A stretch of 63,457 nucleotides of DNA, from positions 1 through 63,457 of IMG/VR virus record IMGVR_UViG_3300032782_000011. One strand, 5' to 3'. A program made the translations under genes and the position numbers. Origin of the DNA: a virus. Position 1 is the first letter of the stretch, and the number at the start of each line of letters is the position of its first letter. Below, piece after piece: positions 13,764-37,536 of this stretch. The notes beneath the pieces were generated by a model. The model had not been told where the DNA came from, made no database searches, and saw only the letters and a program-made list of their open reading frames with translations.

Positions 13764-14708
13764 TTATGCGGCTCCTTTTCGCTTAGCCTGCTGCTCTCTA
13801 ATCATGGCCACAGCCCTCACAGTCTGCTCATCGAGCTTCTCGTAGAACTTACGAATGTTCGGCTCCATGACATCCTCCCACTCGTTCCAGAGCGACGAGG
13901 GGCCGCGAGGCTTCGCGATATACGGCGTCTTATACGGGTCATCTGGGTCGATGTGCTCTCTCAGCCACATCACAGGCTGCTTACGGATGACCTTAATCTT
14001 ACGGGTGGGATTCGTCGGGTCTTTCGCCTCACCCTCGACGTTCATGGGCATCAGGTGTAGCATGGCACCAAACCACGCCCCGCACTGTCCCGTTAGCGCT
14101 TCCCCGATAATCATCGGCCCGTAGATTTGGCGCTTCTGATTATCCTTGGCATCAGTCTCATGAGCCGTCCAACCTACCTTATGCACAGGCAGGTGATTCG
14201 ACATCGTTACTGCCTCGTAGATACGCTGCTGAATGAACCCATAGTGCGCCCTGCCACTGAATCCCCAGCGTAGCTCCATATCCTTGACGAAGCTCTCTTT
14301 CGGAGTCTCAGGGATGTGAATGTCTGTTCTACCGAGCAAATTGGACATAATGAGCGCGGAGAAGGTGCTCATGCCCTCAAACGCTATAGCCCCGACACCT
14401 TTGTAGTCGCTCTTCTCCAGCTTCGAGTTCGGGTCACTCGGATTCACTGGCCAGAAGCCTTGAGCCACTCTCGTGATTATCTCCAGCGGAAACTTCGACG
14501 CTAGGGATATATGGTAAGCCTCAATCAGTCCCGCATCCACGAGGTGCTCGATGGGCTTCCATCCTCCAGGGTCGGCGCTCAGCAGGCGCGTCTTCAGGCC
14601 GTATTTCGCATCTATATACTCAGCGAGGTGGCCTACTTGGCTCGTCTTGGTCGCGCCAGTACGCCCATACCAGCAATCACTCTTCGGCCCTAGGGTGATG
14701 GTCGTCAT
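13764..14708 (-). CDS. RecA-like P-loop ATPase (Sak4-type candidate)
   Basis: A 314-residue protein. The Walker A-like loop is WYGRTGATKTSQVGHL near residue 13-28. A hydrophobic strand GVGAIAFEGMSTFSAL fits Walker B, and KKVGWTAH-type text (VHKVGWTAHETDAKDNQ) follows as the sensor strand. The size and minimal RecA core resemble phage single-strand annealing ATPases such as Sak4. It starts by a TAATG overlap with the HTH gene. A role in recombination or replication restart is likely. Confidence 0.75.
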   Translation of the reverse strand: MTTITLGPKSDCWYGRTGATKTSQVGHLAEYIDAKYGLKTRLLSADPGGWKPIEHLVDAGLIEAYHISLASKFPLEIITRVAQGFWPVNPSDPNSKLEKSDYKGVGAIAFEGMSTFSALIMSNLLGRTDIHIPETPKESFVKDMELRWGFSGRAHYGFIQQRIYEAVTMSNHLPVHKVGWTAHETDAKDNQKRQIYGPMIIGEALTGQCGAWFGAMLHLMPMNVEGEAKDPTNPTRKIKVIRKQPVMWLREHIDPDDPYKTPYIAKPRGPSSLWNEWEDVMEPNIRKFYEKLDEQTVRAVAMIREQQAKRKGAA

Positions 14709-18141: not shown

Positions 18142-18425
18142 TAGCTCCTCCCGACCATGGCGTCATAGTCCATGCTATCCGTCAATGCCTGAGTCGCGTC
18201 CATGAAACGGTTGGCGCTAAACTCCGGCTCATTTACTAGCAAGGCTATAAACGCATCTCTTACTAGGTTAATGCCAGCCCTTTCGCTAGGTGCCTCATGG
18301 CCAAAGCCCGTGCGTTGGTACGCTTGTGTTAGGGCTTCTGCTACCAGACCAATGTGCTCCTGTGTCCAGACTGGCTTGTTACTACTGCTACTTCTACTAC
18401 CTGACTTCCCCCTTCGTTTTTGCAT
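18141..18425 (-). CDS. hypothetical protein with basic N-terminus
   Basis: A 94-residue protein. The ATG at 18425 follows TGGAGGTAGTG. A Lys/Arg/Ser-rich head (MQKRRGKSGSRSSSSNK) leads to a helical body (IGLVAEALTQAYQRTGFGHE). Function unknown. Confidence 0.6.
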   Translation of the reverse strand: MQKRRGKSGSRSSSSNKPVWTQEHIGLVAEALTQAYQRTGFGHEAPSERAGINLVRDAFIALLVNEPEFSANRFMDATQALTDSMDYDAMVGRS

Positions 18426-22980: not shown

Positions 22981-23023
22981 GAGCCGTAAGCGACTCTCCC
23001 TACCCACCGTGATGAGCAGGGAG
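22981..23023 (-). repeat. intergenic hairpin pair before 22967
   Basis: On the minus strand CTCCCT/AGGGAG (23018-23023 with 22996-23001), then GAGTC/GGCTC (22981-22996), then AAAGGGGGA. Same order as the modules at 25.7-30.4 kb, but the first loop is long and lacks a GNRA cap. Confidence 0.5.
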
Positions 23024-23029
23024 CGTGGC

Positions 23030-23230
23030 TTATCTGGTTCTCTTGATTTGCGCTGCCTTGACGGCATGTGGCTGGATGCGCCACACCTTCACATCCTCAG
23101 CGCGCACACCGACAGTCTCGCTGGCACCACTATCAGTGAAGACGAGGAAGCCGAACTTCTGCTTCATGTCCAGAGCCGTGATGGTCATCGTTGTGCCATC
23201 GCTCATCTCAAGCACATAGTCCTGCACCAT
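23030..23230 (-). CDS. hypothetical protein
   Basis: A 66-residue beta-rich protein (MVQDYVLEMSDGTTMTITAL) with basic C-terminus (KAAQIKRTR); the start follows AGAAGGGGGACAC. No family recognised. Confidence 0.6.
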   Translation of the reverse strand: MVQDYVLEMSDGTTMTITALDMKQKFGFLVFTDSGASETVGVRAEDVKVWRIQPHAVKAAQIKRTR

Positions 23231-23570: not shown

Positions 23571-23630
23571 CACATCCCCCTGGAGCGAGTGTTTCATTCG
23601 GCTCACTCTCGCGAATGAGCCTATGCAACA

Positions 23631-23963
23631 CTAGCTGACGGGCTGGGTTGGTCGAGCGGCCTTCTCGACCATGAACTTACTCAGTTCATAGCCGAAGATG
23701 GTCGCTACCTCCGCGCCAATCTGCGAGAAGGTGCAATCGTGCTTCTGCCCCAGCTCAACGATGGCATGGCCAATCACGTGAAACATCTGGTCGGCCCGCT
23801 TGTTCTGATTGAACAGCTTCAACAACGGCTTCCAATCCTCTGGCACCGTTGTCGTCTCAGCAGAGTGCTTCACCTTCTCGTACATGCCCTTGACGAACTC
23901 ATCAAGCTCATCGTTTGTGAGATTCGACGCATCGAGCCCTACGGCATTGGTAATAGCTGACAT
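23631..23963 (-). CDS. hypothetical helical protein
   Basis: A 110-residue protein; the start follows GAAAGGGGGAATT. Acidic helices (LTNDELDEFVKGMYEKVKHS) and IGHAIVELGQKHDCTFSQIG. No catalytic motif is convincing. Function unknown. Confidence 0.65.
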   Translation of the reverse strand: MSAITNAVGLDASNLTNDELDEFVKGMYEKVKHSAETTTVPEDWKPLLKLFNQNKRADQMFHVIGHAIVELGQKHDCTFSQIGAEVATIFGYELSKFMVEKAARPTQPVS

Positions 23964-23995: not shown

Positions 23996-24238
23996 CTACG
24001 AACTCTTTGGCTTTTGGGCCGCTGGCGCACCTAGAGCACAGCAACTCCCCAGCCTCAACTCCTTCACAATCTGCTCCCCGGTGCCACCTCTATCGTCAGT
24101 GTGCTCCACACCCCCGCCACGCTTGAAGGTATTCGCATCCCTTCTGCGTGGGAACGTGTGAACCTGTGTCGCCACAGTCACGAAGTGAGCCTTCTCCAGC
24201 GGCCTAGTCTGCCTACCGCATTTCTCGCACTTAAACAT
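23996..24238 (-). CDS. zinc-finger protein, C-terminus possibly frameshifted
   Basis: An 80-residue protein. MFKCEKCGRQTRPLEKAHFV has the first Cys-x2-Cys; the start follows TAAGGAGGGGCG. The current frame ends GSCCALGAPAAQKPKSS, but the +1 frame reads ELLCSRCASGPKAKEF, a second knuckle like those in related small phage proteins. A late frameshift is possible. Confidence 0.6.
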   Translation of the reverse strand: MFKCEKCGRQTRPLEKAHFVTVATQVHTFPRRRDANTFKRGGGVEHTDDRGGTGEQIVKELRLGSCCALGAPAAQKPKSS

Positions 24239-24247
24239 CGCCCCTCC

Positions 24248-24382
24248 TTAGGGTGCTACATGAGCTAATGGCTCATAGACAATGAGACACGCCCCTAAAA
24301 CCACCAGCACCGCAGCCAGTAGCGCGACATACGCTATCCCGATGACCACGGTATTCCAATTCCTATCCTTCTCGCCGGACAC
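24248..24382 (-). CDS. small membrane protein
   Basis: A 44-residue protein from GTG at 24382 after AAGGGGGTGCTCC. A polar head (SGEKDRNWNT) and one long membrane helix (VVIGIAYVALLAAVLVVLGA) with a short tail. Overlaps the next gene's end by 20 bases. Confidence 0.55.
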   Translation of the reverse strand: MSGEKDRNWNTVVIGIAYVALLAAVLVVLGACLIVYEPLAHVAP

Positions 24383-24530
24383 GGAGCACCCCCTTGACGT
24401 TAAGCTCAACAACAAAGGCCCTACACGCGGCACACTCAATCGTCACCACCTTACGCTTGGCGTCAAAATACACACTGACACCATCAAAAGGGTGGCAATT
24501 CGCAACCAGATACTTCCCTCGCTTGGCCAT
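24363..24530 (-). CDS. small zinc-knuckle protein
   Basis: A 55-residue protein starting MAKRGKYLVANCHPFDGVSV after GGAAGGAGATTTG, with VVTIECAACRAFVVEL in the middle. Cys/His content suggests one metal site. Start coupled to the preceding stop (TGATG). Confidence 0.6.
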   Translation of the reverse strand: MAKRGKYLVANCHPFDGVSVYFDAKRKVVTIECAACRAFVVELNVKGVLRVRREG

Positions 24531-24718
24531 CAAATCTCCTTCCCCGCATGGCGCTCGTCGAAGGTACGCATCCAGTGATTGAGCACCTTCTTGGCTTCGT
24601 CGTCACTCAAACCAAATCTCCTCACCAGCCAAGGCCTTGCGCCATACATATTCGTCTGGCCACTGTCGCGCAGCCTATCGAGGTAGCGCATGTATTTCCC
24701 CATCTGCTTATCGGTCAC
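24530..24718 (-). CDS. hypothetical helical protein
   Basis: A 62-residue protein: MTDKQMGKYMRYLDRLRDSG, then PWLVRRFGLSDDEAKKVLNH, a possible HTH-like or small helical domain. Coupled to 24363-24530 by TGATG. Confidence 0.6.
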   Translation of the reverse strand: MTDKQMGKYMRYLDRLRDSGQTNMYGARPWLVRRFGLSDDEAKKVLNHWMRTFDERHAGKEI

Positions 24719-24734
24719 AGCCCATCACCTCCCC

Positions 24735-24935
24735 TCAAGACATGCTCCAACCCTGGAATGCCAGATACGACAAAATCTGGCCAGCATAGGCCTCGGCCTG
24801 CTCACGATACGGGAAGGGCTTCGAAACGAAGTCGTAGCAGCTCTCGGTCATGACTTCGAACTCTGACTGGTTGCTGCTGAAAATGGCGAGCTTCGATTCG
24901 GAGGCAATCACCCCTACGTAGAAGCTATCTCTCAC
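24735..24935 (-). CDS. hypothetical protein
   Basis: A 66-residue protein with GTG start in a GTGA overlap. MRDSFYVGVIASESKLAIFS and YREQAEAYAGQILSYLAF; mixed beta/alpha. No family recognised. Confidence 0.55.
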   Translation of the reverse strand: MRDSFYVGVIASESKLAIFSSNQSEFEVMTESCYDFVSKPFPYREQAEAYAGQILSYLAFQGWSMS

Positions 24936-25120
24936 CAGTCCTCACCTCCTTTGAGGCCTAGGCGCACAGCCTCACAATCCCAGTGATACACCATGCCATC
25001 TGGCGCAACATACACCTCATCGCCAGTAGTGAACCTTCTATGGCACAGGTCGCATCTCCTCCCTACTAGCGGATGGTCCCACGTCAGGGGAGAGAACTTT
25101 CTCAAATCTCCATGCGTCAC
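24932..25120 (-). CDS. zinc-finger mini-protein
   Basis: A 62-residue protein with GTG start after GGAGGTGGTAA. GRRCDLCHRRFTTGDEVYVA and MVYHWDCEAVRLGL place Cys/Cys and His/Cys pairs as in a LIM-like zinc finger. Confidence 0.65.
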   Translation of the reverse strand: MTHGDLRKFSPLTWDHPLVGRRCDLCHRRFTTGDEVYVAPDGMVYHWDCEAVRLGLKGGEDW

Positions 25121-25291
25121 TTACCACCTCCATGGGATTAGGGTGCTGATAATCCCCGAAATCAGGCTAATCAACAAATTCACCTTCCACTGGGAGAAGA
25201 ATGGAAGCTCCCTGGCCTTGTAATCCAGCCAGCAGAGCACAAAGAACGTCAGGGGAACACCTATAAGTGTGCCAACGTGATACGCGCTCAA
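25121..25291 (-). CDS. small membrane protein, two helices
   Basis: A 56-residue protein with TTG start after GGAGGTGGTAG. VGTLIGVPLTFFVLCWLDY and VNLLISLISGIISTLIP are membrane helices. The C-terminal WRW codons form the ribosome site of the next gene. Function unknown. Confidence 0.55.
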   Translation of the reverse strand: MSAYHVGTLIGVPLTFFVLCWLDYKARELPFFSQWKVNLLISLISGIISTLIPWRW

Positions 25292-25456
25292 CTACCACCT
25301 CCACTCTCTGCCAACCGAGATGTGCCCACAGCGCCCCTTATGCACCGCGAGCGGTACCCGGCACGGCTCAACCCTCGCCTTCATGCCGCCGCAGGATTGT
25401 AGCACGGCCACGACTAGAAGTAGTAGCATCACCTTCGCAACCCTAGCTACCTTCAT
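25292..25456 (-). CDS. small lipoprotein
   Basis: A 54-residue protein: MKVARVAKVMLLLLVVAVLQ followed by SCGG, a lipobox (LQSC). The mature part is about 34 residues with two more cysteines. Its C-terminal WRW is again encoded by the ribosome site GGAGGTGGTAG. Small lipoproteins of this size include outer-membrane spanins, but this one lies far from the endolysin. Confidence 0.55.
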   Translation of the reverse strand: MKVARVAKVMLLLLVVAVLQSCGGMKARVEPCRVPLAVHKGRCGHISVGREWRW

Positions 25457-25551
25457 CACTCCCCTACCTTTCCCCCATTTCGCAGGATGTAAAACACTCC
25501 CGCTACCAAGAGAGCTTCTAACGCGATGAACAAGCCAATGACCTCTAGCAC
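25456..25551 (-). CDS. mini membrane protein
   Basis: A 31-residue protein, GTG start after GGAGGTGCCGAC. VIGLFIALEALLVAGVFYIL is one membrane helix; the end (RNGGKVGE) is polar. TGATG overlap with the lipoprotein gene. Confidence 0.45.
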   Translation of the reverse strand: MLEVIGLFIALEALLVAGVFYILRNGGKVGE

Positions 25552-25742: not shown

Positions 25743-25793
25743 GTCGCCCCTCAATGAGCGACCCGGTGAGGGGCTGCTTCCCACAGCCCCTCA
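25743..25793 (-). repeat. intergenic hairpin module before 25724
   Basis: First hairpin TGAGGGGCTG/CAGCCCCTCA (10 bp, arms 25767-25776 and 25784-25793, 7-base loop); second GTCGC/GCGAC (25743-25747 and 25758-25762); then AAGGGGGA. No U-run follows, so it is not a typical terminator. Confidence 0.6.
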
Positions 25794-25842
25794 TTGTCTC
25801 GCTCAGCAAGACCCCTACCATAAGCTCAAGGTGGTACTCACC

Positions 25843-26094
25843 TTAACCCTCAACCACTTCCTCTACTTCGAAAATAGCATCGGCCAGCGCCGCACCCGTA
25901 ACTTCACCAATCTTCGCGAGTGCCAGCGCCCCTCCAAATGCCACCTCTCTGTGGACAAAGTGGATGAGAAACGCTCCAGCAATCAACCCCCCAACCATCG
26001 CGGTAGTCCTGATGATAAATGCAGTCATCCTCGGACCAATCGTGATGGTAATCGTGTGGTTCCTGAGTAGGCTTTTAGCCTTCCTCGCAGTCAT
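25843..26094 (-). CDS. membrane protein
   Basis: An 83-residue protein; the start at 26094 lies inside the acidic gene (20-base overlap). A basic head (MTARKAKSLLRNHTITITIG) precedes MVGGLIAGAFLIHFV, a membrane helix, and FGGALALAKIGEVTGAALAD, a second Ala/Gly-rich one. Possible pore-type or inner-membrane protein. Confidence 0.6.
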   Translation of the reverse strand: MTARKAKSLLRNHTITITIGPRMTAFIIRTTAMVGGLIAGAFLIHFVHREVAFGGALALAKIGEVTGAALADAIFEVEEVVEG

Positions 26095-26236
26095 CGCTCT
26101 CCGCCTCCGGCTCGAATGTGTCGGTCGGACCTTCGGCTTCAACTGCTGGCACCGCTCCACCGTCGTCCTCCCACTGAGCAACTTCACCTCGCAGGATTTC
26201 GTCGGCCTCAGGAACACAGCTTCCCACTGGCTCCAT
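26075..26236 (-). CDS. small acidic protein
   Basis: A 53-residue, strongly acidic protein (EILRGEVAQWEDDGGAVPAV, then FEPEAESDDCEEG). The start follows AAAGGGGGATACGA. Such acidic mini-proteins can mimic DNA or block host nucleic-acid enzymes, but no motif supports this here. Confidence 0.6.
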   Translation of the reverse strand: MEPVGSCVPEADEILRGEVAQWEDDGGAVPAVEAEGPTDTFEPEAESDDCEEG

Positions 26237-26246
26237 TCGTATCCCC

Positions 26247-26310
26247 CTTTCCAAGTTGCGCCTCTACCACCTTGAGCAACTCCTCGGCATGCCACTTTCG
26301 CAGCATGCCG
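26247..26310 (-). repeat. intergenic hairpin module before 26236
   Basis: First hairpin CGGCATGC/GCATGCCG (26285-26292 and 26303-26310) whose top TGC-GAAA-GTG forms a GNRA tetraloop closed by C-G; second hairpin GTTGC/GCAAC; then AAAGGGGGA. Confidence 0.6.
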
Positions 26311-26346
26311 GAGCGTTACTCAACGCTTGTTCGACGATGGAGACGA

Positions 26347-26592
26347 TTAGAACGGCAAATCGTCGTCGCTCCCGTCGTCCTCACCCTCAACCGGAGGCAG
26401 GTCGTCCGCCGCGCCCAAGTCATTCGGCCCGGTCGGCGCATCGGCCAAGCCAATACCGAGCAACGCGGCCAACGCAGCCGCATCGGCATCGCTCATGCCC
26501 TTCAGCCCCGGCACCTTGGACTTCGCGCTCGCAACGATGCGGCGCGCAGCCTTCCGGTGATGCTTCTGGACCTTCGTGGTTGTAACAGCCAT
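26347..26592 (-). CDS. small protein with SSB-like acidic C-terminal tip
   Basis: An 81-residue protein starting at 26592 after AAAAGGGGAATACC. The head is basic (KVQKHHRKAARRIVASAKSK), the middle Ala/Leu-rich, and the end is GEDDGSDDDLPF. Asp-rich tails ending D-(I/L)-P-F are the interaction tip of bacterial single-strand DNA-binding proteins. It could bind nucleic acid through the head and recruit, or mislead, host SSB partners. No OB fold is visible. Confidence 0.65.
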   Translation of the reverse strand: MAVTTTKVQKHHRKAARRIVASAKSKVPGLKGMSDADAAALAALLGIGLADAPTGPNDLGAADDLPPVEGEDDGSDDDLPF

Positions 26593-26619
26593 GGTATTCC
26601 CCTTTTCATTTTGTGAATT

Positions 26620-26685
26620 TGGAGCGTTACCTCGCTCCAGAGCAGCCATAAGCCACTCATGAGTGCCACTCACACTAGGCACTCA
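26620..26685 (-). repeat. intergenic hairpin module before 26592
   Basis: First hairpin TGAGTGCC/GGCACTCA (26660-26667 and 26678-26685); second TGGAGCG/CGCTCCA (26620-26626 and 26633-26639); then AAAAGGGGA. The first loop (10 bases) is not GNRA-capped. Confidence 0.6.
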
Positions 26686-26693
26686 GGTGTAGC

Positions 26694-27194
26694 TCACTCG
26701 GCTTCAACCGGGTGATAACCCCCACACCTCGCGCACTTCATACCCACCTGCATGCCCATCATCCTGAGCATCGCAGGAGTCGGTAGAGTCTCGAATGGCG
26801 CTTTCTCAACTGCGACCTCATACGAGTGCAGGTCAGCTTTCACTTGCTTCTCATCAAGTGGAACCATCATCCTGGCAAAATCCCAAGCCTGACGTTCCTC
26901 AGCGAGCCTATCCTGCATCATGGAGCGCGAGAGGTGAATCGCCTCGTAACTCCCAAGGCGCGACTTCGCCTCGGTCGAGTTAGCCTCATCTCTCACCGTC
27001 GATGGTAGTTTGAGTATCCTACCAACCGCATGGCCCAACTCATGGGCCAGTGTGGTAGCATTCAATCCACCATGCTTCGGAGAGAGCCTGATACGGTATT
27101 GATTAGGCCGCATCTTGTTGGTATCGATGCAACCTCCACAGTCCATATCCTCATCGTCTTCGACGACGAATATCACTCCCATTACCTTCCCCAT
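26694..27194 (-). CDS. ImmA/IrrE-type zinc metallopeptidase
   Basis: A 166-residue protein from 27194 after AAGGGGGATTCG. LNATTLAHELGHAVG carries the HExxH zinc site, and LAEERQAWDFARMMVPLDE carries the downstream E-x2-A-x2-FA-x3-(M/L)-P signature of the ImmA/IrrE family. The C-terminus KCARCGGYHPVEAE may bind a second zinc. Family members cleave repressors; in a virulent phage the target might be a host regulator or a rival prophage repressor. Confidence 0.8.
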   Translation of the reverse strand: MGKVMGVIFVVEDDEDMDCGGCIDTNKMRPNQYRIRLSPKHGGLNATTLAHELGHAVGRILKLPSTVRDEANSTEAKSRLGSYEAIHLSRSMMQDRLAEERQAWDFARMMVPLDEKQVKADLHSYEVAVEKAPFETLPTPAMLRMMGMQVGMKCARCGGYHPVEAE

Positions 27195-27207
27195 CGAATC
27201 CCCCTTA

Positions 27208-27264
27208 GGCACCACCTTTCCCCTTTCGAATAGTGCCCATTGGAGCGCCTCACTGAAGCGCCCC
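27208..27264 (-). repeat. intergenic hairpin module before 27194
   Basis: First hairpin on the minus strand GGGGCGC/GCGCTCC (27242-27248 and 27258-27264, one G-U pair) with top TTCAGTGAG; second GGCAC/GTGCC (27208-27212 and 27233-27237); then AAGGGGGA. Confidence 0.65.
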
Positions 27265-27277
27265 TAGCGCACCACTC

Positions 27278-27595
27278 TCAATTCACAGGCCCGTTGACCA
27301 CCACCGCATTCACAGGCACCGCTGAGACAAAAGGCTTACAGTCACCTGTCTCAGCAAGCGACCTGATGATGTGATTCATCGAATCGCACATGGCGCTGGC
27401 CAGCTCGTCGCGTTCCACAAGCCCGCCCACCTTCGCGTTGATTCTATCCATCACCGCATCGGTGAGTATCTCGCTCTCGACCCGCTTGACGGCCTGCACC
27501 TTGTCGCCCTTGCATGAGACAACGATGTCCCTGAGCTTGTCCACCTCGCCGAAGTTAAACAAATCTCCAGCGAGTATCATCTTATGCTGTACCAT
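27278..27595 (-). CDS. hypothetical protein
   Basis: A 105-residue protein from 27595 after AAAGGGGGATTCG. MVQHKMILAGDLFNFGEVDK, KRVESEILTDAVMDRINAKV; helical, with VPVNAVVVNGPVN at the end. Function unknown. Confidence 0.65.
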   Translation of the reverse strand: MVQHKMILAGDLFNFGEVDKLRDIVVSCKGDKVQAVKRVESEILTDAVMDRINAKVGGLVERDELASAMCDSMNHIIRSLAETGDCKPFVSAVPVNAVVVNGPVN

Positions 27596-27608
27596 CGAAT
27601 CCCCCTTT

Positions 27609-27652
27609 GAGTGCCAAATAGCACCCCTGACACGGCCTGTCGCCAAGCCGTG
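27609..27652 (-). repeat. intergenic hairpin module before 27595
   Basis: First hairpin CACGGC/GCCGTG (27631-27636 and 27647-27652), extended through U-G, U-A and G-C pairs to a GCGA tetraloop (loop region TTGGCGACAG on the minus strand); second GGGTGC/GCACTC (27609-27626); then AAAGGGGGA. Confidence 0.7.
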
Positions 27653-27660
27653 CTAACGTG

Positions 27661-27873
27661 CTACTTCATGCACGGTGAGCTTAGATTATGTGAAGTCTCA
27701 ACCGTGGCCACCTTCCCATCGGCGACCACTGAGACATTGACATCGCGAAACGGCCCATCTCCCACGACACTGTAGACCTCGGTTTGCACCGCTCTTCCGA
27801 TGCATGCGAGGTCTTCCTGGTCGAGTTCATCGACAGGCCCGTTAACCGTCGCTGTTATTACTATCTGCTTCAC
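27661..27873 (-). CDS. hypothetical protein
   Basis: A 70-residue protein with GTG start after GAAAGGAGGCAACCAAAA. Beta-rich (QIVITATVNGPVDELDQEDL, RDVNVSVVADGKVATVETS). Its C-terminal stop is in the GTAGCAC motif that opens the next hairpin module. Confidence 0.6.
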   Translation of the reverse strand: MKQIVITATVNGPVDELDQEDLACIGRAVQTEVYSVVGDGPFRDVNVSVVADGKVATVETSHNLSSPCMK

Positions 27874-28033
27874 TTTTGGTTGCCTCCTTTCTCAGGAGTT
27901 GAGCACTAATCAACATGAAGGCAGCCAACATGAACACACTAACCGCCTCGTGATGGCATACCACCTCTCCAGCACCCATACCTCCCAGAAAGTATCCAGC
28001 CCTCGTGAGCAGGCCCGCAGCCTTACGCACCAC
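27842..28033 (-). CDS. small membrane protein
   Basis: A 63-residue protein with GTG start after GGGGAGGTGAGTG, overlapping both neighbours. LLTRAGYFLGGMGAG and VSVFMLAAFMLISAQLL are the membrane-prone parts; tail RKEATKSEADSNNSDG is polar. Confidence 0.5.
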   Translation of the reverse strand: MVRKAAGLLTRAGYFLGGMGAGEVVCHHEAVSVFMLAAFMLISAQLLRKEATKSEADSNNSDG

Positions 28034-28265
28034 TCACCTCCCCTCGCTCGCTACGCAGCCCCGTAGAGTGAATATCGGCGAGTATTTTCGGCAAAGCCTG
28101 AGGCATGACGACAACACTTCCCAGACTCGCGAGAGGTTGATAGTCCACTCGCTTCTGGATATATCGCTTCGACCACACTTTTGCCGCATCAGTGAGTGGC
28201 TTCAGAACCACGACGCTGCCATAGTTAAACAGCACGAAGTCCATATCCGCTACTGTGAAGTCCAA
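28023..28265 (-). CDS. hypothetical protein
   Basis: An 80-residue protein. TTG at 28265 is chosen because AAAGGGGGAACC precedes it, as in neighbouring genes. LDFTVADMDFVLFNYGSVVV and the helical VWSKRYIQKRVDYQPLASLG. Function unknown. Confidence 0.6.
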   Translation of the reverse strand: MDFTVADMDFVLFNYGSVVVLKPLTDAAKVWSKRYIQKRVDYQPLASLGSVVVMPQALPKILADIHSTGLRSERGEVSGA

Positions 28266-28277
28266 GGTTCCCCCTTT

Positions 28278-28324
28278 GAGTGCCAAAAGCAGCACCCATT
28301 GAGGAGACTCTTGCGAATCTCCTC
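28278..28324 (-). repeat. intergenic hairpin module before 28265
   Basis: First hairpin GAGGAGA/TCTCCTC (28301-28307 and 28318-28324), extended by U-G, U-A, C-G to a GCAA tetraloop (TTCGCAAGAG); second GGGTGC/GCACTC (28278-28297); then AAAGGGGGA. Confidence 0.7.
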
Positions 28325-28344
28325 TAGCGTGCTACTTCAGGGCC

Positions 28345-28617
28345 TTAGGCCGCGACGGGCTGAGAGGCGCTTACAATCTGCACCTTCCAACCTTCGGAAC
28401 GCAGCCCATCGGCCATGTCGTCTTCCGCGCCGATGTTGAGCGGTGCGGTGCGATTCTGAATCACCTCGGCGGGCACGTTCGCCGACATCTCCGCGAAGGC
28501 TTTGTCGTTGCAGGCCCTCACGGTCGGATTGCTGTCGTCGCGGGTGATGATGAAGTCATACTTCCCCACCACCTTCGTGCTTCCGGTGTGCTTCGCGAAG
28601 TGTGCTTTCGTTGACAT
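28345..28617 (-). CDS. hypothetical protein
   Basis: A 90-residue protein from 28617 after AAAGGGGAATACC. MSTKAHFAKHTGSTKVVGKY, then RDDSNPTVRACNDKAFAEMS. Mixed fold, no motif recognised. Confidence 0.65.
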   Translation of the reverse strand: MSTKAHFAKHTGSTKVVGKYDFIITRDDSNPTVRACNDKAFAEMSANVPAEVIQNRTAPLNIGAEDDMADGLRSEGWKVQIVSASQPVAA

Positions 28618-28634
28618 GGTATTCCCCTTTGTGT

Positions 28635-28703
28635 GTGAGCTTGTGCTCACCGTGCCCCTTTGGCTAGGCGACACTCATCATGGAGCCTGTCTCCAAGCTC
28701 CAT
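28635..28703 (-). repeat. intergenic hairpin module before 28617
   Basis: First hairpin ATGGAGC/GCTCCAT (28680-28686 and 28697-28703), extended to a GAGA tetraloop closed by G-C (TTGGAGACAG); second GTGAGC/GCTCAC (28635-28650, perfect); then AAAGGGGA. Confidence 0.7.
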
Positions 28704-28711
28704 ACTGCGTG

Positions 28712-29116
28712 TCACTCGCCTGTCTTGATGAAGTAGTCGATGCGCTTAGCCGTCACCTCAGCCCGAGCCTTCCGGTCATCTATGGCATCGGAATACTGTT
28801 GCCGATACGGCTCTGGCCAGTTGGCAACGTAGAACAGCTTATCCCGTTGGTCGGTGGTGATTTTGAGCAACTTCATACCCTCAACATCAGCCCTGCCTAT
28901 CAGGTTGTTGAACTCATCCAGGCGCTTCTCGCTCAACCTCGCCCCGATAACCTCAGGGTGATTGAGCATCACCGCCCACCCCGCGATGCAGCCCACAGTC
29001 CCACAACGCGGGCCACCACTATATGGCTTCACCTTCATCCCGAAGAAGCCCATATCCAACCGCTTAGGCTCTTCGAGAATCTGCTTCTTGACCTTTCGCA
29101 GTAATGTCTTATTCAT
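28712..29116 (-). CDS. CGTxGCIAGW-motif protein, hypothetical
   Basis: A 134-residue protein from 29116 after AAGGGGGATAACG. GGPRCGTVGCIAGWAVMLN is a signature of a common small phage/bacterial family of unknown role. Helices follow with DQRDKLFYVANWPEPYRQQY. Confidence 0.75.
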   Translation of the reverse strand: MNKTLLRKVKKQILEEPKRLDMGFFGMKVKPYSGGPRCGTVGCIAGWAVMLNHPEVIGARLSEKRLDEFNNLIGRADVEGMKLLKITTDQRDKLFYVANWPEPYRQQYSDAIDDRKARAEVTAKRIDYFIKTGE

Positions 29117-29133
29117 CGTTATCCCCCTTATGT

Positions 29134-29189
29134 GAGTGCCGCTTGTAGCAGCACCCATCTAGGACACTCGCTTTCCTTCGAATGCCCTA
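29134..29189 (-). repeat. intergenic hairpin module before 29116
   Basis: First hairpin TAGGGCA/TGTCCTA (arms 29160-29166 and 29183-29189, one G-U) with the conserved top TTCG...CGAG and a longer loop; second GGGTGC/GCACTC (29134-29156); then AAGGGGGA. Confidence 0.65.
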
Positions 29190-29197
29190 GCTGTGTG

Positions 29198-29347
29198 CTA
29201 CTTACTTTCGCGCCGACTTGGCAGCATGGAGCGAAGAATCTCCAAATCGTGTGGCTCACCGATTATCGTGCCGTCTCCACGTATTGTGATTCTCAGCCTC
29301 AGCGCCTCAGCGACTCGCACAACCTTGTCGTGCTGAAAGACGACCAC
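29198..29347 (-). CDS. mini-protein, hypothetical
   Basis: A 49-residue protein with GTG start after TGAGGTGCGGAG. VVFQHDKVVRVAEALRLRIT, then RGDGTIIGEPHDLEILRSML. Its stop lies in the GTAGCAC motif preceding the module at 29134. Confidence 0.55.
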   Translation of the reverse strand: MVVFQHDKVVRVAEALRLRITIRGDGTIIGEPHDLEILRSMLPSRRESK

Positions 29348-29356
29348 CTCCGCACC

Positions 29357-29482
29357 TCATTTCCTGGTCGCGTGCGCATCGTAACCCATACCGCGCAACC
29401 TCGCGGCACAGGCCAGCGCACTAGACCACAGAGCGAAGGGTAAGCCACTAATGCGCTTCCCTCCCACTGTTATGTGGTACAT
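29357..29482 (-). CDS. mini-protein, hypothetical
   Basis: A 41-residue protein from 29482 after AAGGGGGAATGCT: MYHITVGGKRISGLPFALWS, then SALACAARLRGMGYDAHATR. The ribosome site and hairpin module in front support it. Confidence 0.55.
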   Translation of the reverse strand: MYHITVGGKRISGLPFALWSSALACAARLRGMGYDAHATRK

Positions 29483-29494
29483 AGCATTCCCCCT

Positions 29495-29540
29495 TGAGCG
29501 TAAAGAACGCTCACGGTGGGCACTCTCGACGAATGCCCAC
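29495..29540 (-). repeat. intergenic hairpin module before 29482
   Basis: First hairpin GTGGGCA/TGCCCAC (29516-29522 and 29534-29540) with top TTC-GTCGA-GAG; second TGAGCG/CGCTCA (29495-29500 and 29508-29513, perfect); then AAGGGGGA. Confidence 0.7.
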
Positions 29541-29551
29541 TAGCGCGTCCC

Positions 29552-29755
29552 TTACTTCACCTTGACCACCACCCCATCTTTGACCTCAACCTGCGCGTAC
29601 CAGCGATGGGGCTCAGGGTAGTGCGGGCCTTCTGCGAATTCGGTGCCGTTATCCTTCGGAGCACCAATCCCAGGAGCATAGAGCGTCACCCTGTCACCCT
29701 TCGCCACAGCATCCTTCAGAGCCTTTTTGGTCTTGAAGTTCGGTAGTGTGTACAT
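29552..29755 (-). CDS. hypothetical protein
   Basis: A 67-residue protein from 29755 after AAGGGGGAATGAG. MYTLPNFKTKKALKDAVAKG, DRVTLYAPGIGAPKDNGTEF and RWYAQVEVKDGVVVKVK. A basic small beta protein of unknown role. Confidence 0.65.
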   Translation of the reverse strand: MYTLPNFKTKKALKDAVAKGDRVTLYAPGIGAPKDNGTEFAEGPHYPEPHRWYAQVEVKDGVVVKVK

Positions 29756-29769
29756 CTCATTCCCCCTTA

Positions 29770-29812
29770 GAGCGCAATAGCGCCCATTGTGGAGCCTCTC
29801 TCGAAGCTCCAC
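29770..29812 (-). repeat. intergenic hairpin module before 29755
   Basis: First hairpin GTGGAGC/GCTCCAC (29789-29795 and 29806-29812), extended by U-G, U-A, C-G to a GAGA tetraloop (TTCGAGAGAG); second GGGCGC/GCGCTC (29770-29785, one G-U); then AAGGGGGA. Confidence 0.7.
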
Positions 29813-29822
29813 TAGCGCGCTA

Positions 29823-30332
29823 CTACTTCAGCTCGTCGTCGCCAGCCTCATCGTCTCCGTGCTCTGGCAACTCGACATCGGTAGTGATTGGCGGGTCAGC
29901 CAACCCCATCAGCGGGTCGCGGCCCACATTGGGTTGGTTCGCGAGCCATTCCTGCACCCTGATAGCCTTCTCAGGAGCAGGATTGCCTTTCCGGTCGGCG
30001 AACGTGAGCTTGTCCCAGTTCGCAACCATGAACTCCGCGAGAGAGTCCTTGGCTTCGAGCACCGAAACGAGCTGGTCGGCATACAGCGTAACCGGGAAGC
30101 CTTGCAATCCCAGAATCATGATGCCACCCTTGGCACCGACCTGGAACCTCAAGCCCCGTTTCGGCGCTTCCTGAAGGCGCGCAACCTGAGCCCTGAGAGC
30201 CGCTATCTCCGCATCTCTCGGGTCCACCGATTTCGTCGTCTTCAGAGCCGCAACCTTCGTGGCATCGTAACCGACACCAACTGGCCGCTGAGCCGGATTC
30301 GTAACTTTCGACTGTCCGTTTGTCGTATCCAT
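29823..30332 (-). CDS. hypothetical protein with coiled coil
   Basis: A 169-residue protein after AAGGGGGATACATC. A coiled coil (DPRDAEIAALRAQVARLQEA) precedes RGLRFQVGAKGGIMILGLQG and GFPVTLYADQLVSVLEAKDS, with an acidic tail (GDDEAGDDELK). The shape resembles small phage DNA-associated proteins, but no function is assigned. Confidence 0.65.
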   Translation of the reverse strand: MDTTNGQSKVTNPAQRPVGVGYDATKVAALKTTKSVDPRDAEIAALRAQVARLQEAPKRGLRFQVGAKGGIMILGLQGFPVTLYADQLVSVLEAKDSLAEFMVANWDKLTFADRKGNPAPEKAIRVQEWLANQPNVGRDPLMGLADPPITTDVELPEHGDDEAGDDELK

Positions 30333-30348
30333 GATGTATCCCCCTTGT

Positions 30349-30404
30349 GAATTAGCTACTATGACGTAGCCTACGAGGTGCTCAACGCGAGGGTTACTCG
30401 CGTT
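30349..30404 (-). repeat. intergenic hairpin module before 30332
   Basis: First hairpin AACGCGAG/CTCGCGTT (30384-30391 and 30397-30404) with 5-base loop TAACC; second around GCTAC/GTAGC; then AAGGGGGA. The first loop differs from the GNRA consensus. Confidence 0.55.
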
Positions 30405-30600: not shown

Positions 30601-30616
30601 GGTGTAACCCTCCCAC

Positions 30617-31271
30617 TGAGCACCCCCTAGGCTACGGGTTCGCTGCCAGCATCCTTCGAGCTACGATGCGAATTACCGCACGTCGCGCTCAGTGCCAGAG
30701 CGAACCCCATAACCTTTCACTAAGGGGGGAATCCGTTTCCCGGTACCTAGTGCTCATCAGCCTACGCTGTACTTGGCTCACCGCTCTTACGAGTCAGTAT
30801 CGTCGCCTTGCCTTGTCGCCTGCCATGCCGCACCCTCTACGGGCTATACGCGTTGGGGAGTGTCCCGTGATGGAGTTCGTTCCATACTGCAAGCCAGTGA
30901 CGCCAGCCAGTTCAACACAACACTGACGTATAGCCAAAGGATTATCGGCCTAGCAAGCTATCGCCTGCCTAGACTCTCCACTGTGGGGTAATTGCTGCCT
31001 GTCACTGAGATGTGACGCGGCACACCACCCAATCGTTTTGGGGACGTACAGACTACTTTCAGCATGGCTAAGGAGCTAGTGGTTTCCCGCACTCTCCGGC
31101 ACTCGTTCCGTTGGGCTTACACCGCGTTTCCATGAGGAAACGTCTTACAGGGCCAACGTACTGTGATTAGCCGATAGCCTTTCCCGCACTACCAGCGGCA
31201 CCGTACCATGGTTGCAGACTGCCTTACCGGGTATCTAGGATGGGCTATCATGGTGTCCCACCGTGCCCGGT
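30617..31271. ncRNA. candidate large structured RNA (strand not settled, + favoured)
   Basis: No credible gene in 30601-31878. Helices seen by eye: TGAGCAC...TAGG (30617-30631) with CCTAGTGCTCA (30746-30756) enclosing GGGTTCGCT/AGCGAACCC (30636-30644, 30699-30707), which encloses GCATC/GATGC and GCAC/GTGC. GGCTATACG/CGTATAGCC (30842-30850, 30927-30935) encloses ATGGAG-TTCG-TTCCAT and CAGTG/CACTG. Further: GTCAC-TGAGAT-GTGAC (31001-31016), GGCTAA/TTAGCC (31066, 31167), GTTGG/CCAAC around CGTTTCC-ATGA-GGAAACG (31125-31142), ACCGGG/CCCGGT (31226, 31266). UUCG and GAGA caps read correctly on the + strand. Phages are known to carry ornate large RNAs such as GOLLD and ROOL; membership is not claimed. 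Confidence 0.6.
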
Positions 31272-31878
31272 TAACTTGCCACATCGGCGGCTCTGAAGTG
31301 TTCCCAGCCCGCTTGAAACTGGCCGGGGTGAACCGCCGCAACGGACTAGAGCAGTTTGGTACCCATTTCCAGCCCGCTGAAAACAAAGGGTTTAGCCAGC
31401 CACCATGGGAAAATAACTGGGCCAAACGGGAAATGAATTGCCATAAACGGGAAAACGCCTGGAGTGCTAGTATTGCTAGTACTAGAGCGATAGGGGTACG
31501 AGGTCGAGAGTGAGGTGCATAGGTCGCGATTCGCTTCCATGCGCCCTACTGCTACTCATAGTCCCAATGTGCGCCATTGTCCATGGTGTGGCAGCATGCG
31601 ACCGGGACATATGAATGATGCGGTCACGAGCCACGACGCGTTGGGTCGTTCCAGTACTACTGCTACTGCTAGTACTCATGGCCGTCGTAGTACTGCCATA
31701 GTACCAGTACTGTCCCTAGTTGTCCGTCTCGGGGGGTGAGAAGTACAGGTACATGTCCCCGTGGCCCCAGCGTCGCGTGGACTATTTTTTATTTTTTAGT
31801 GGTGCTCATCAGGTGAGGGGGAAACTGCGGATGCGGGTTAGTCACGCGGCTCTCCCTACCCCGCCCTTGGGAGCCTCG
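31272..31878. other. non-coding gap with short direct repeats
   Basis: No gene supported. Contains two copies of CCAGCCCGCT (31304-31313 and 31369-31378), two of AAACGGGAAA (about 31424 and 31446), the palindrome CTAGTACTAG near 31475-31484, and T-runs in ACTATTTTTTATTTTTTAG near 31781. Possibly the 3' part of the structured RNA plus a control region for the divergent arms. Confidence 0.45.
31653..31711. repeat. AGTACT repeat cluster
   Basis: The palindromic hexamer AGTACT occurs at 31653, 31671 and 31689 (exact 18-base steps) and at 31706, with AGTACC at 31700. Evenly spaced short repeats near the point where transcription diverges suggest an operator or iteron array. Confidence 0.5.
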
Positions 31879-34589: not shown

Positions 34590-35251
34590 GCACCCCCCGC
34601 ATCGTCACGGCTCTAGAGCGTGTCGGCACCACCAAGGATGCCGTCAACGCGCAGCCACGCATCACCGAGCAGCTCTCTACCCTGAAGCAGCTCCTCATCA
34701 AGCACGCCCCGGAGGATGCGGCCTTCCAAGGCCCCTATTACTACCTTCATTGCAGTGACGCTCCAGAGGCTCGCGCTATTCTAGATAAGTACTATTCAGT
34801 CCCAAAAACCATCCGTAAGCTGCTACCCATCGAGGCCTTTTGTACAGCAGCAGGTGTCAGTACGCTCAAGGCCCTTGAAGTCATCTACGGCACCGCTGCC
34901 CGTATCGCCCAACAAGGCACCGTCGTCGCTCAAGCCCTCGCCTCAGCCAAGTCCCCCGATGTAGTCGAGATGAGTATGGGATTCGCCAACGACCCGATGG
35001 GCTTCAAAGACCGCGAAATGCTCGCCAAAATCAGCGGCCTCATCCAGCAACCGAAGGGCACAAACATCAAAATCACCCAGAACGCCAACGCCAGCGCGAC
35101 TGCTGTGGCTGCCAGCGCCGCTCCCCCACCTGAGCAGACCATCCGCCGCATGGTGGACCGTTGGAACGACCGGAATCCCCCTGCCCTCGTAGTGGAAGGT
35201 GTAGTGGAAGATGACGATGATGTATCACAAAGTAACGTAATCGACCAATAG
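34586..35251 (+). CDS. putative terminase small subunit
   Basis: A 221-residue protein directly before the large terminase gene. Helical, with an HTH-like stretch (KLLPIEAFCTAAGVSTLKAL) near residue 80-100, a central helical region that may oligomerise, and an Ala-rich then acidic tail (EGVVEDDDDVSQ). The assignment rests on position and general make-up. Confidence 0.5.
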   Translation: MSTPRIVTALERVGTTKDAVNAQPRITEQLSTLKQLLIKHAPEDAAFQGPYYYLHCSDAPEARAILDKYYSVPKTIRKLLPIEAFCTAAGVSTLKALEVIYGTAARIAQQGTVVAQALASAKSPDVVEMSMGFANDPMGFKDREMLAKISGLIQQPKGTNIKITQNANASATAVAASAAPPPEQTIRRMVDRWNDRNPPALVVEGVVEDDDDVSQSNVIDQ

Positions 35252-35274: not shown

Positions 35275-37536
35275 ATGTACAGCAAGCGCAAAGTCCAAGA
35301 ACGTCTCGACCTCGCCCGCGAGGAATTCGGTTTCAACCCCGCCGAATGGTACTACTCGACCGAGGAAATCGACAGTTTCAACGCTCAACTGGAGCGTCAG
35401 GGCAAGCTCGTCTACGATGACGTGGGCAAGCCCTCGGGCGTCATCAATCTCACCCCCGCCGACGCCGAATTCATCCGCCACAACCAAGTTCTCGTCATGT
35501 GCGATGCCGTCTACGCCCTCACACGTTTCTGCTACGTAAAAAACGAGGAGAACATCGTCCAGCGCTTTCGCTTTCGCATCCCCCAGCGCCTGCTTTTCGA
35601 CATCATCTGCGACCTGGAAGAGCGCGACGCGGCGATAGAAATCATGATTTTGAAGGCCCGCCAGCTAGGGATGACAACCCTAGTTCAACTTCTCATCGCC
35701 CTGCGCATCATTTTCAGCTACGGCGTAACCGCCGTCACGGGAAGCGCCGACCAACAGAAAACGGGCGAAATGTCGCGCATGCTCCTGTTCTGCTACGACA
35801 TGCTCCCTGTTTGGCTCCGCCCCACCTCGACCTCCCGTATCGAATCTGAGCGTGGCCGCTTGCTCTTCGGCCACCTCGCATCGGGCGTCAGCTTCCAGCA
35901 CGGCACCCAGAAGCACGGTATCGCCACAGGTTCTACCCCAACCATCTACCACCTATCTGAAGTAGCACTCTATGACGACCCTGTGAAGCTCATCGACGAA
36001 GGCCTATGGAAAGCGGTACACGCCTCCGCATCCATTTTCGGCATCCTCGAATCGACCGGACGCGGCAACAAGGGCTGGTGGGCCGAAACGTGGTACTACA
36101 GCAAAGCCAACTGGCCACATGCCCGCATGTGCCCCCTTTTCCTACCCTGGTTCTGCGGCGTAGACATCTATCCCAAGGCCGCATGGCTGCGCATCCGCCC
36201 CATCCCGGACGGCTGGCTCCCGAATCGCGACACTCAGCTCCACGTTGCAAAGTGCAACCTCTACGTCGAATCGAACCCTGCCCTCCGCAAGCACCTTCGC
36301 GACTTCGAAGTGAAGCGTGGCAACCTGCGCCCCGGCGAACCATGGCGCATGCCCCGCGAGCAGCAGTGGTTCTGGGAGATTAATCACAATGAAGCGAAAG
36401 AAAAGGGCAACGAACCCTCCTTCCTGCAAGAAATGGCTGGAGACGATGAGGAAGCACTTCAGAGGTCCGTTGAGAACGTATTTGGCCATGAGGTCATTGA
36501 GTCAATCGACGTGCGCAGGGAGCGCAGCTACACCCTCTGGGGAATCACTGGCCAGTCCATCGAAGACCGCCAAGAGCCCCCTCCACACTACATCGACTAC
36601 TCGAAGGAGCGCATCCCCGTCCGGTGGCAAGGCCGTAAGGAAGAGCAACGCTACTACTGGGAGCTAGTGCCACTGAAGATGTCTCCTCCTCCCCGTGAGC
36701 ACGAACCAGAGGATGTCGCGAATAATCTCATCGTCTTCCACCCCCCTGAGCCCGGCATGGACTACTCCATCGGCGTTGATACCTCCGAGGGCAAGGGCCT
36801 AGACTCGACCGTCATCAGCGTCTGGAGCATTGGCAAGCGCGGCCAACCAGACCTGCAAGTCGCGGAATTCGCCTCCCCCTACGTGAATCACGTCGAAGTT
36901 TACGCCTTCGCATTCGCCATCGCCGCCTACTACGGCCAGTTCATGGGTCAAGGTCGCTCTCGCTGGCCCATGCCCTACCTGACCGTCGAACAAGTAGAAG
37001 CAGTAGGTGACGTGTGCCAAGGTCAGATGATGCGCATGGGCTACCCTTACGCAGCAGTTCACAAATTCGTGCGTCTCGACTCCAGCCCAAAGCGCATCGC
37101 CAAGCAGAAGCGCTCTCAATCCACCAAGCCCGGTTGGTACACGCACGGCTGGTCGCGCCCCATTCTTACAGGCAACTTCGTAGCCTTTGTCCAGAACAAC
37201 TGGGCAGAAGTGAACTCACCATGGTTGCTGGAAGAGATGAAGGAATACGAGGTCCACTACACCGCCCGTGGCCGCGAGAAGATGGAGCACGCCGACGACG
37301 CCCATGACGACCGCATCATGGCCGCTGCGATGGCTGTGTTCTGCCCTCAGGACCTTCGCCTCCTCGCCGAGCGCGCCAAGGTCCGCCATGTCCATACCGA
37401 AGCGCTGCCCCCTATCGACATGGGCACCTACGGTGGCCACACCATCAACCTCAGCTCCCAGCGCCAAACCAGTTCCATCAATCTCGAAGACGTGTTATGG
37501 TACGGCCAGAACGACCTTGAGAGGTTCACCCGATGA
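35275..37536 (+). CDS. terminase large subunit
   Basis: A 753-residue protein, long for the family. Walker A-like IEIMILKARQLGMTTLVQLL, a coupling strand GVTAVTGSADQQKTGEM, Walker B region TIYHLSEVALYDDP and GILESTGRGNKGWWAE form the ATPase half. The nuclease half has YSIGVDTSEGKGLDSTVISV, a central VEQVEAVGDVCQG and EHADDAHDDRIMAAAMAVF (acidic RNase H-like residues). It cuts and pumps DNA into the prohead at the portal. Confidence 0.9.
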   Translation: MYSKRKVQERLDLAREEFGFNPAEWYYSTEEIDSFNAQLERQGKLVYDDVGKPSGVINLTPADAEFIRHNQVLVMCDAVYALTRFCYVKNEENIVQRFRFRIPQRLLFDIICDLEERDAAIEIMILKARQLGMTTLVQLLIALRIIFSYGVTAVTGSADQQKTGEMSRMLLFCYDMLPVWLRPTSTSRIESERGRLLFGHLASGVSFQHGTQKHGIATGSTPTIYHLSEVALYDDPVKLIDEGLWKAVHASASIFGILESTGRGNKGWWAETWYYSKANWPHARMCPLFLPWFCGVDIYPKAAWLRIRPIPDGWLPNRDTQLHVAKCNLYVESNPALRKHLRDFEVKRGNLRPGEPWRMPREQQWFWEINHNEAKEKGNEPSFLQEMAGDDEEALQRSVENVFGHEVIESIDVRRERSYTLWGITGQSIEDRQEPPPHYIDYSKERIPVRWQGRKEEQRYYWELVPLKMSPPPREHEPEDVANNLIVFHPPEPGMDYSIGVDTSEGKGLDSTVISVWSIGKRGQPDLQVAEFASPYVNHVEVYAFAFAIAAYYGQFMGQGRSRWPMPYLTVEQVEAVGDVCQGQMMRMGYPYAAVHKFVRLDSSPKRIAKQKRSQSTKPGWYTHGWSRPILTGNFVAFVQNNWAEVNSPWLLEEMKEYEVHYTARGREKMEHADDAHDDRIMAAAMAVFCPQDLRLLAERAKVRHVHTEALPPIDMGTYGGHTINLSSQRQTSSINLEDVLWYGQNDLERFTR

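What the first reader, a model, noticed from the sequence alone, without database searches (positions are those of the whole stretch)
25743..30404. Repeated two-hairpin module in front of most early genes, first stem covarying under a GNRA cap
Between minus-strand genes the order is: GTAGCACGCTAG-like text, hairpin 1, hairpin 2, AAGGGGGA ribosome site, start codon. In five copies hairpin 1 is a 6-8 bp stem of different sequence (GTGGAGC, GAGGAGA, CACGGC, ATGGAGC, CGGCATGC) extended by two further pairs (usually U-G then U-A; G-U in one copy) and a C-G or G-C pair to a tetraloop GAGA, GCAA, GCGA, GAGA or GAAA: all fit GNRA. The closing pair itself switches C-G to G-C with both sides changing. 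Stem sequence changes while pairing is kept, so selection acts on RNA structure. No U-run follows, so these are not ordinary terminators. Processing sites, mRNA stabilisers or protein-bound translational switches are possible.
Basis: seen in the sequence. Interest (0 to 1): 0.88.

Follow-up and report, generated by a model that had tools for sequence, protein, structure and literature searches.

The report
T7-type RNase III sites before genes
In an uncultured phage whose nearest named relatives infect Acidobacteriota, at least eleven genes of one early operon are each preceded by an RNA stem that matches, in shape and key letters, the sites where the bacterial enzyme RNase III cuts the messenger RNA of phage T7, so the long early transcript is probably cut into ready-to-use pieces in a phage lineage where this was not known.

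Summary
The text before hairpin 1 (strand A, e.g. GUAGCAC) pairs with the 5' arm of 'hairpin 2' (strand B). A:B plus hairpin 1 form one irregular stem of about 22 layers with a 4/5-nt internal loop (GCUA/AAUGG). Strand C, just before AAGGGGGA, pairs with B as an alternative. Eight copies match a covariance model and three more share the plan. Covariation is strong: 17 of 19 pairs change on both sides and 97% of cells are paired. A:B and B:C are each specific to their own copy (p=5e-5 and 3e-4). The sense strand is the stable one, so this is RNA. A model built only from this phage and relatives gives five hits in the whole T7 genome and one in T3, all at RNase III processing sites, and none in lambda. 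A model built from T7 sites gives four hits in this window, all on these modules. Best explanation: T7-type RNase III processing signals. Cutting after AAUG would leave a downstream mRNA whose 5' end is closed by B:C in eight of eleven copies. Cleavage itself is untested. A Shine-Dalgarno switch, DNA operators and terminators are disfavoured.

The parts
29776..29824 (-). Element M2: P1 (A:B), internal loop GCUA/AAUGG, P2 with GAGA cap; predicted cut after AAUG between 29785 and 29784
   Evidence: R2 65.6 bits, E 2.8e-14; fold
29770..29775 (-). Strand C of M2 (GCGCTC), alternative partner of B
29503..29552 (-). Element M3 (5-nt loop)
   Evidence: R2 E 2e-11; T7-site model R3 E 1.1e-5
29496..29501 (-). 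Strand C of M3 (ACGCTC)
29147..29202 (-). Element M4 (long loop; CA/UG inner pairs)
   Evidence: R2 E 1e-5; R3 E 0.0032
29134..29143 (-). Strand C of M4 (AGCGGCACTC)
28667..28716 (-). Element M5 (GAGA cap); upstream stop TGA at element positions 3-5
   Evidence: R2 E 3.1e-10
28288..28336 (-). Element M6 (GCAA cap); predicted cut between 28297 and 28296
   Evidence: R2 E 4.6e-14; T7-site model R3 42.3 bits, E 5.5e-8
28278..28283 (-). Strand C of M6 (GCACTC)
27617..27665 (-). Element M7 (GCGA cap)
   Evidence: R2 E 5.2e-11
27609..27614 (-). Strand C of M7 (GCACTC)
27229..27276 (-). Element M8; A/B/C all inverted to GTGC/GCAC/GTGC
   Evidence: R2 E 8.4e-11
27208..27213 (-). Strand C of M8 (GGTGCC)
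26272..26323 (-). Element M10 (GAAA cap, 9-bp P1), same architecture, not reported by R2
   Evidence: fold -33.5 kcal/mol; z -4.34
26254..26259 (-). Strand C of M10 (GCAACT)
   Evidence: weak by shuffle, 0.20
25755..25805 (-). Element M11, same architecture, not reported by R2
   Evidence: fold -34.3 kcal/mol; z -5.0
25743..25747 (-). Strand C of M11 (GCGAC)
23586..23634 (-). Element M12 (GCGA cap), no strand C
   Evidence: R2 E 4.1e-5; R3 E 0.051
22987..23032 (-). Element M14, same architecture, borderline by model R1 (E 0.11)
29761..29768 (-). AAGGGGGA ribosome site; 14 copies in the record, all minus strand, at 18407, 18824, 22972, 23234, 23967, 25733, 26242, 27199, 27600, 28269, 29122, 29488, 29761 and 30339

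Best explanation
Each element is an RNase III processing signal of the T7 type in the polycistronic early mRNA. Host RNase III is proposed to bind the ~22-layer irregular stem (P1, asymmetric 4/5 internal loop, P2) that starts at the upstream gene's stop codon and cut once in the 3' side of the internal loop (AAUG|G, by analogy with the T7 annotation UAUG|A). The upstream message then ends in the P2 hairpin. The downstream message starts just before strand B; once freed from A, B can pair with C, so the new 5' end is folded into a short hairpin immediately before AAGGGGGA. Shown: the structure, its covariation, that it acts as sense-strand RNA, its position between stop codon and ribosome site, the A/B/C complementarity, and two-way cross-recognition with T7/T3 RNase III sites. 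Inferred: cleavage by RNase III, the cut position, the B:C refolding and any effect on stability or translation.
For: Covariation: 13 of 20 pairs change on both sides within the window and 17 of 19 across phages with ~60% identical portals, 97.0% of cells paired against 64.3% shuffled, 0/500 shuffles; with T7/T3 sites added, 17/19 and 96.9%. Blind test: model R2, built without T7, scans all 39,937 bases of T7 and returns five hits, all plus strand and intercistronic: 5849-5897 (R1.1), 36818-36866 (R18.5), 13855-13902 (R4.7), 1429-1478 (R0.5), 3102-3148 (R1); E 2e-7 to 0.006. In the annotated T7.1 record, hits 6038-6086 and 3258-3304 lie on stem-loops RSL_R1.1 6036-6088 and RSL_R1 3258-3304. 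In T3 the only hit, 35040-35086, lies on 'RNase III recognition site R18.5' 35038-35088. Nothing significant in lambda or the Tunturi_1 loci. Reciprocal: model R3 from seven T7 sites has four hits in the window, all on modules, best E 5.5e-8, and finds relatives G018 and G013. R1.1 is described as a 60-nt RNA with an asymmetric 4/5-nt internal loop between T7 genes 1.0 and 1.1 and carries the in vivo RNase III site (PMC6121014); the typical copies here have the same 4/5 loop. Cap context is shared: UUC-GCAA-GAG in R1.1 and M6. The upstream stop codon ends at element position -1 to +5 in 13 of 14 elements of this phage group, and in 4 of 5 T7 elements plus the T3 one. Sense strand more stable than antisense in 21 of 23 elements (p=1.7e-6). 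In 8 of 11 copies the leader fold of the predicted cut product starts at its first or second nucleotide; T7 R1.1 does the same.
Against: No transcript or cleavage data exist. RNase III has loose sequence demands, so a shared shape does not prove use. R2 misses several T7 sites (R0.3, R1.3 and others) and nine of ten annotated T3 sites. Most relatives in this phage family give no R2 hit (9 of 48 records, the window included, do), though some carry differently sequenced stems in the same place. Alignments made by the model lean towards its structure. In some full-length folds (M6, M7) other pairings with the coding region compete with B:C.
Confidence: 0.82

Rival explanations
1. Translation-gated RNA switch: a ribosome ending at the stop codon inside strand A melts P1, B pairs with C, and this changes processing, stability or initiation for the next gene.
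For: A:B and B:C share B and are each copy-specific (p=5e-5 and 3e-4); the stop codon overlaps strand A in most copies.
Against: Predicted accessibility of the ribosome site is much the same in both states in most copies. Strand C is missing in M5 and M12 and is not evident in most relatives. B:C is also explained as the 5' end of a cut product.
Confidence: 0.1
2. Binding site for a phage or host RNA-binding protein other than RNase III that coordinates early gene translation.
For: Near-invariant U.G and U-A pairs, GNRA caps and a constant internal loop look like recognition features.
Against: The same features occur in T7/T3 RNase III sites, so no new protein is needed.
Confidence: 0.06
3. 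DNA-level operator or promoter repeats like the ESAS of Cluster K phages.
For: Same place: inverted repeats ahead of an unusually conserved ribosome site in non-structural genes (PMC3203893, PMC7302621).
Against: G-U pairs favour the sense RNA in 21 of 23 elements; stems change sequence while pairing is kept.
Confidence: 0.01
4. Intrinsic terminators or attenuators.
For: Strong hairpins between genes.
Against: No U-run directly follows the stems; a ribosome site follows within about 20 nt in nearly all elements.
Confidence: 0.01

Closest known systems
RNase III processing signals of phages T7 and T3 (R0.3, R0.5, R1, R1.1, R1.3, R4.7, R18.5)
   Same: Intercistronic, start at the upstream stop codon, ~22-layer irregular stem, asymmetric internal loop with inner C-G pair, ~10-bp upper stem, R1.1 with UUC-GCAA-GAG cap; found by each other's covariance models. 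R1.1 also has a leader hairpin that begins at the cut.
   Different: Phage lineage whose nearest named relatives infect Acidobacteriota, not Autographiviridae; GC-rich stems; loop GCUA/AAUGG instead of ACUC/UAUGA; nearly one per gene over 7 kb; strand C in most copies; cleavage untested.
SAS/ESAS of Cluster K and EF actinophages
   Same: Unusually conserved ribosome site with a repeat just upstream, non-structural genes.
   Different: Authors found that Cluster K ESAS repeats do not support RNA pairing (PMC3203893); here pairing is strongly supported; sequences unrelated.
RNase III sites in early mRNA of Bacillus phage SP82 (from memory)
   Same: Repeated processing sites in phage early mRNA.
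   Different: Not compared by sequence here.

Membership tests
T7-type RNase III processing signal | Lies between genes of a phage operon, upstream stop codon at its 5' edge | tested here: met
T7-type RNase III processing signal | Irregular stem of about two helical turns with asymmetric 4/5 internal loop | tested here: met
   PMC6121014; some copies have a symmetric variant
T7-type RNase III processing signal | Recognised by a profile of known sites and the reverse | tested here: met
   negative control lambda
T7-type RNase III processing signal | Cut by RNase III in vivo, once, in the 3' side of the internal loop | not testable with these tools
   no RNA data; annotated T7 cut after UAUG maps to AAUG here
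Intrinsic terminator | G+C-rich hairpin followed at once by a U-run | tested here: not met
   by reading; followed by a ribosome site
SAS/ESAS | 13-bp GGGATAGGAGCCC-like start sequence and 17-bp repeats of fixed sequence, without RNA pairing | tested here: not met
SD-sequestering translational switch | Alternative structures that hide and expose the ribosome site | tested here: not met
Any Rfam family | Match at or above gathering score | tested here: not met
   only a tRNA in the window

The most novel reading that the evidence does not exclude
Each element is a processing site gated by translation: a ribosome finishing the upstream gene melts P1, because the stop codon is inside strand A, and so decides whether RNase III cuts and whether the B:C hairpin forms, giving gene-by-gene feedback along the early operon; the shared stop-codon placement in T7 would then be functional too.
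Probability: 0.12. Interest if true: 0.82.

Novelty: new variant of a known kind. Interest (0 to 1): 0.64.

Why it matters
T7 RNase III sites are the textbook case of phage mRNA processing and a standard tool in RNA biochemistry and synthetic biology. Finding the same signal, recognisable in both directions by covariance models, in an unrelated lineage of uncultured phages suggests either strong convergence on RNase III's real preferences or an old shared module. The many covarying natural variants give a data set for what RNase III reads, and strand C suggests a use for the new 5' end.

Tried and rejected
Search for close relatives of the early region: none by DNA in phages, by two early proteins or by an exact module pattern. 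First model R1 (with the C strand and ribosome site) found nothing significant in relatives; dropping those parts and adding three relatives gave R2. A general hairpin scan of relatives was noisy, and most listed stems lie in coding sequence. SD switch tested by partition function: no consistent change. Phage-encoded RNase III domain (PF14622) absent from the record, so the host enzyme is assumed. Modules at 30.34-30.41 kb, 26.59-26.69 kb and 23.23-23.35 kb do not fit the element. The weak hit in G001 (E 0.083) and the hit in G039 (E 3.8e-4; context not worked out) are not claimed.

Full report
WHAT IS THERE. The window is an IMG/VR virus record of 63,457 bases. Its portal protein is ~60-64% identical to other IMG/VR contigs and 32% identical to the Acidobacteriota phages Tunturi_1 and 2. 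On the minus strand, 14 exact AAGGGGGA ribosome sites occur and none on the plus strand. The minimum-energy fold of each leader is therefore one long irregular stem, P1 (A:B) - internal loop - P2 (hairpin 1), and hairpin 2 (B:C) is an alternative that uses the same strand B.

MORE THAN CHANCE. In six copies, 13 of 20 pairs have two-sided changes and 99.2% of cells are paired, 0/500 shuffles. Own-copy against swapped-copy duplex energies: A:B -11.6 against -7.1 (p=5e-5), B:C -8.9 against -6.2 (p=3e-4). Example: A/B/C read CAC/GTG/CAC in several copies, CGC/GCG/CGC in M2, and GTGC/GCAC/GTGC in M8. Leader z-scores: -3.66 for AAGGGG-type starts against -0.42 and -0.11 elsewhere. The sense strand is more stable than the antisense in 21 of 23 elements, so RNA is selected, not a DNA palindrome.

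RELATIVES. R1, which included the leader text, found nothing significant in relatives. Scanning their early regions for stems just before ribosome sites gave the same plan with the same internal loop in G010, G013 and G018. R2, built from six window copies and these three, then found an untrained copy in G020 (E 1e-4) and a weak one in G017. Over 14 distinct sequences, 17 of 19 pairs covary, score 0.905 against 0.254 shuffled and at most 0.20 for slid partners; the U.G pair is invariant in 13 of 13 and the next U-A pair in 13 of 14. The genes behind the elements in G013 and G018 look unrelated to each other and to those of the window by eye. Other relatives have stems of similar size with other sequences in the same place (G004, G023, G027).

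IDENTITY. Folding the known T7 RNase III sites gave the same anatomy; R1.1 is AGGGACAAACUCAAGGUCAUUCGCAAGAGUGGCCUUUAUGAUUGACCUU. This was tested blind: R2 against all of T7 returns five hits, all at RNase III sites. Two of these sites are recovered with matching coordinates in the annotated record DQ100054. T3's only hit is its annotated R18.5. Lambda and the Tunturi_1 loci give nothing significant. The converse model R3, from seven T7 sites, gives four hits in the window, all on modules, the best E 5.5e-8, and two in relatives below 0.01. The 4/5 asymmetric internal loop is the described feature of R1.1 (PMC6121014). The upstream stop codon ends at element position -1 to +5 in 13 of 14 elements here, and in R0.5, R1, R4.7 and R18.5 of T7 and R18.5 of T3. 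Site names other than those annotated in DQ100054 and the T3 record (R4.7 and R18.5 of T7) are taken from the T3 homologues and from memory of the T7 literature.

MECHANISM. Annotated cuts in T7.1 follow UAUG in R0.3, R0.5 and R1.1, which maps to AAUG|G here. In 8 of 11 copies the leader left by that cut folds into a hairpin whose first paired base is nucleotide 1 or 2 of the product, in seven of them rarely matched by shuffles (at most 0.017). T7 R1.1's leader also starts with a 7-bp hairpin at the cut. The proposed order is: transcription, folding of P1-P2, a single cut in the 3' side of the loop, release of B from A helped by C, and a 5'-closed mRNA with the ribosome site next to it. Cleavage, release and any stabilising effect are inferred, not shown. 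The record encodes no RNase III domain found by PF14622, so the host enzyme is assumed.

ALTERNATIVES. A switch that hides the ribosome site is not supported. Cluster K ESAS were judged not to pair as RNA, unlike these. Terminators lack a U-run. A translation-gated version of processing remains open, because the stop codon is inside strand A.

LIMITS. E-values are rough; alignments produced by the model lean towards its structure; R2 misses about half the T7 sites and most T3 sites; 39 of 48 records searched show no R2 hit. Whether the likeness to T7 is common descent or convergence on RNase III cannot be told here.

Noticed in passing
window 30610-31500, minus strand: About 900 nt with few convincing genes just upstream of the module array folds unusually well (z -2.9, 0 of 20 shuffles) and has no convincing Rfam or phage-DNA match; a candidate large structured noncoding RNA.
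   Followed up: partly
L015 6921-6970, 7266-7323, 7734-7786, 8627-8683 (G004): Relative with stems of the same size before four early genes but a different consensus (GAGUUAGC ... GUUAACUC), not matched by R2; possibly the same function with other sequence.
   Followed up: partly
L115 5967-6020; L117 5402-5455 and 5818-5883 (G023, G027): Third stem type, CUAACUGC ... GCGGUUAG, also before early ribosome sites.
   Followed up: no
window 9521-12316, minus strand: 931-aa protein joins a uracil-DNA glycosylase domain (residues 30-171) to a family A DNA polymerase domain (541-693).
   Followed up: no
window 28596-28720, minus strand: M5 is followed by two ribosome sites (AAAGGGGCACGGTG and AAAGGGGAATACCATG) in one reading frame with a separate hairpin between them, suggesting two starts for one gene.
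   Followed up: no
L127 5890-5920 (T7 R1.1): The T7 R1.1 cut product can fold its first seven bases with GGUUAAU downstream, a three-strand arrangement like the one here; the third strand overlaps promoter phi1.1B.
   Followed up: partly
window 24000-25550, minus strand: A run of small genes with ordinary GGAGGTG-type ribosome sites and no modules sits between two module-bearing stretches.
   Followed up: no
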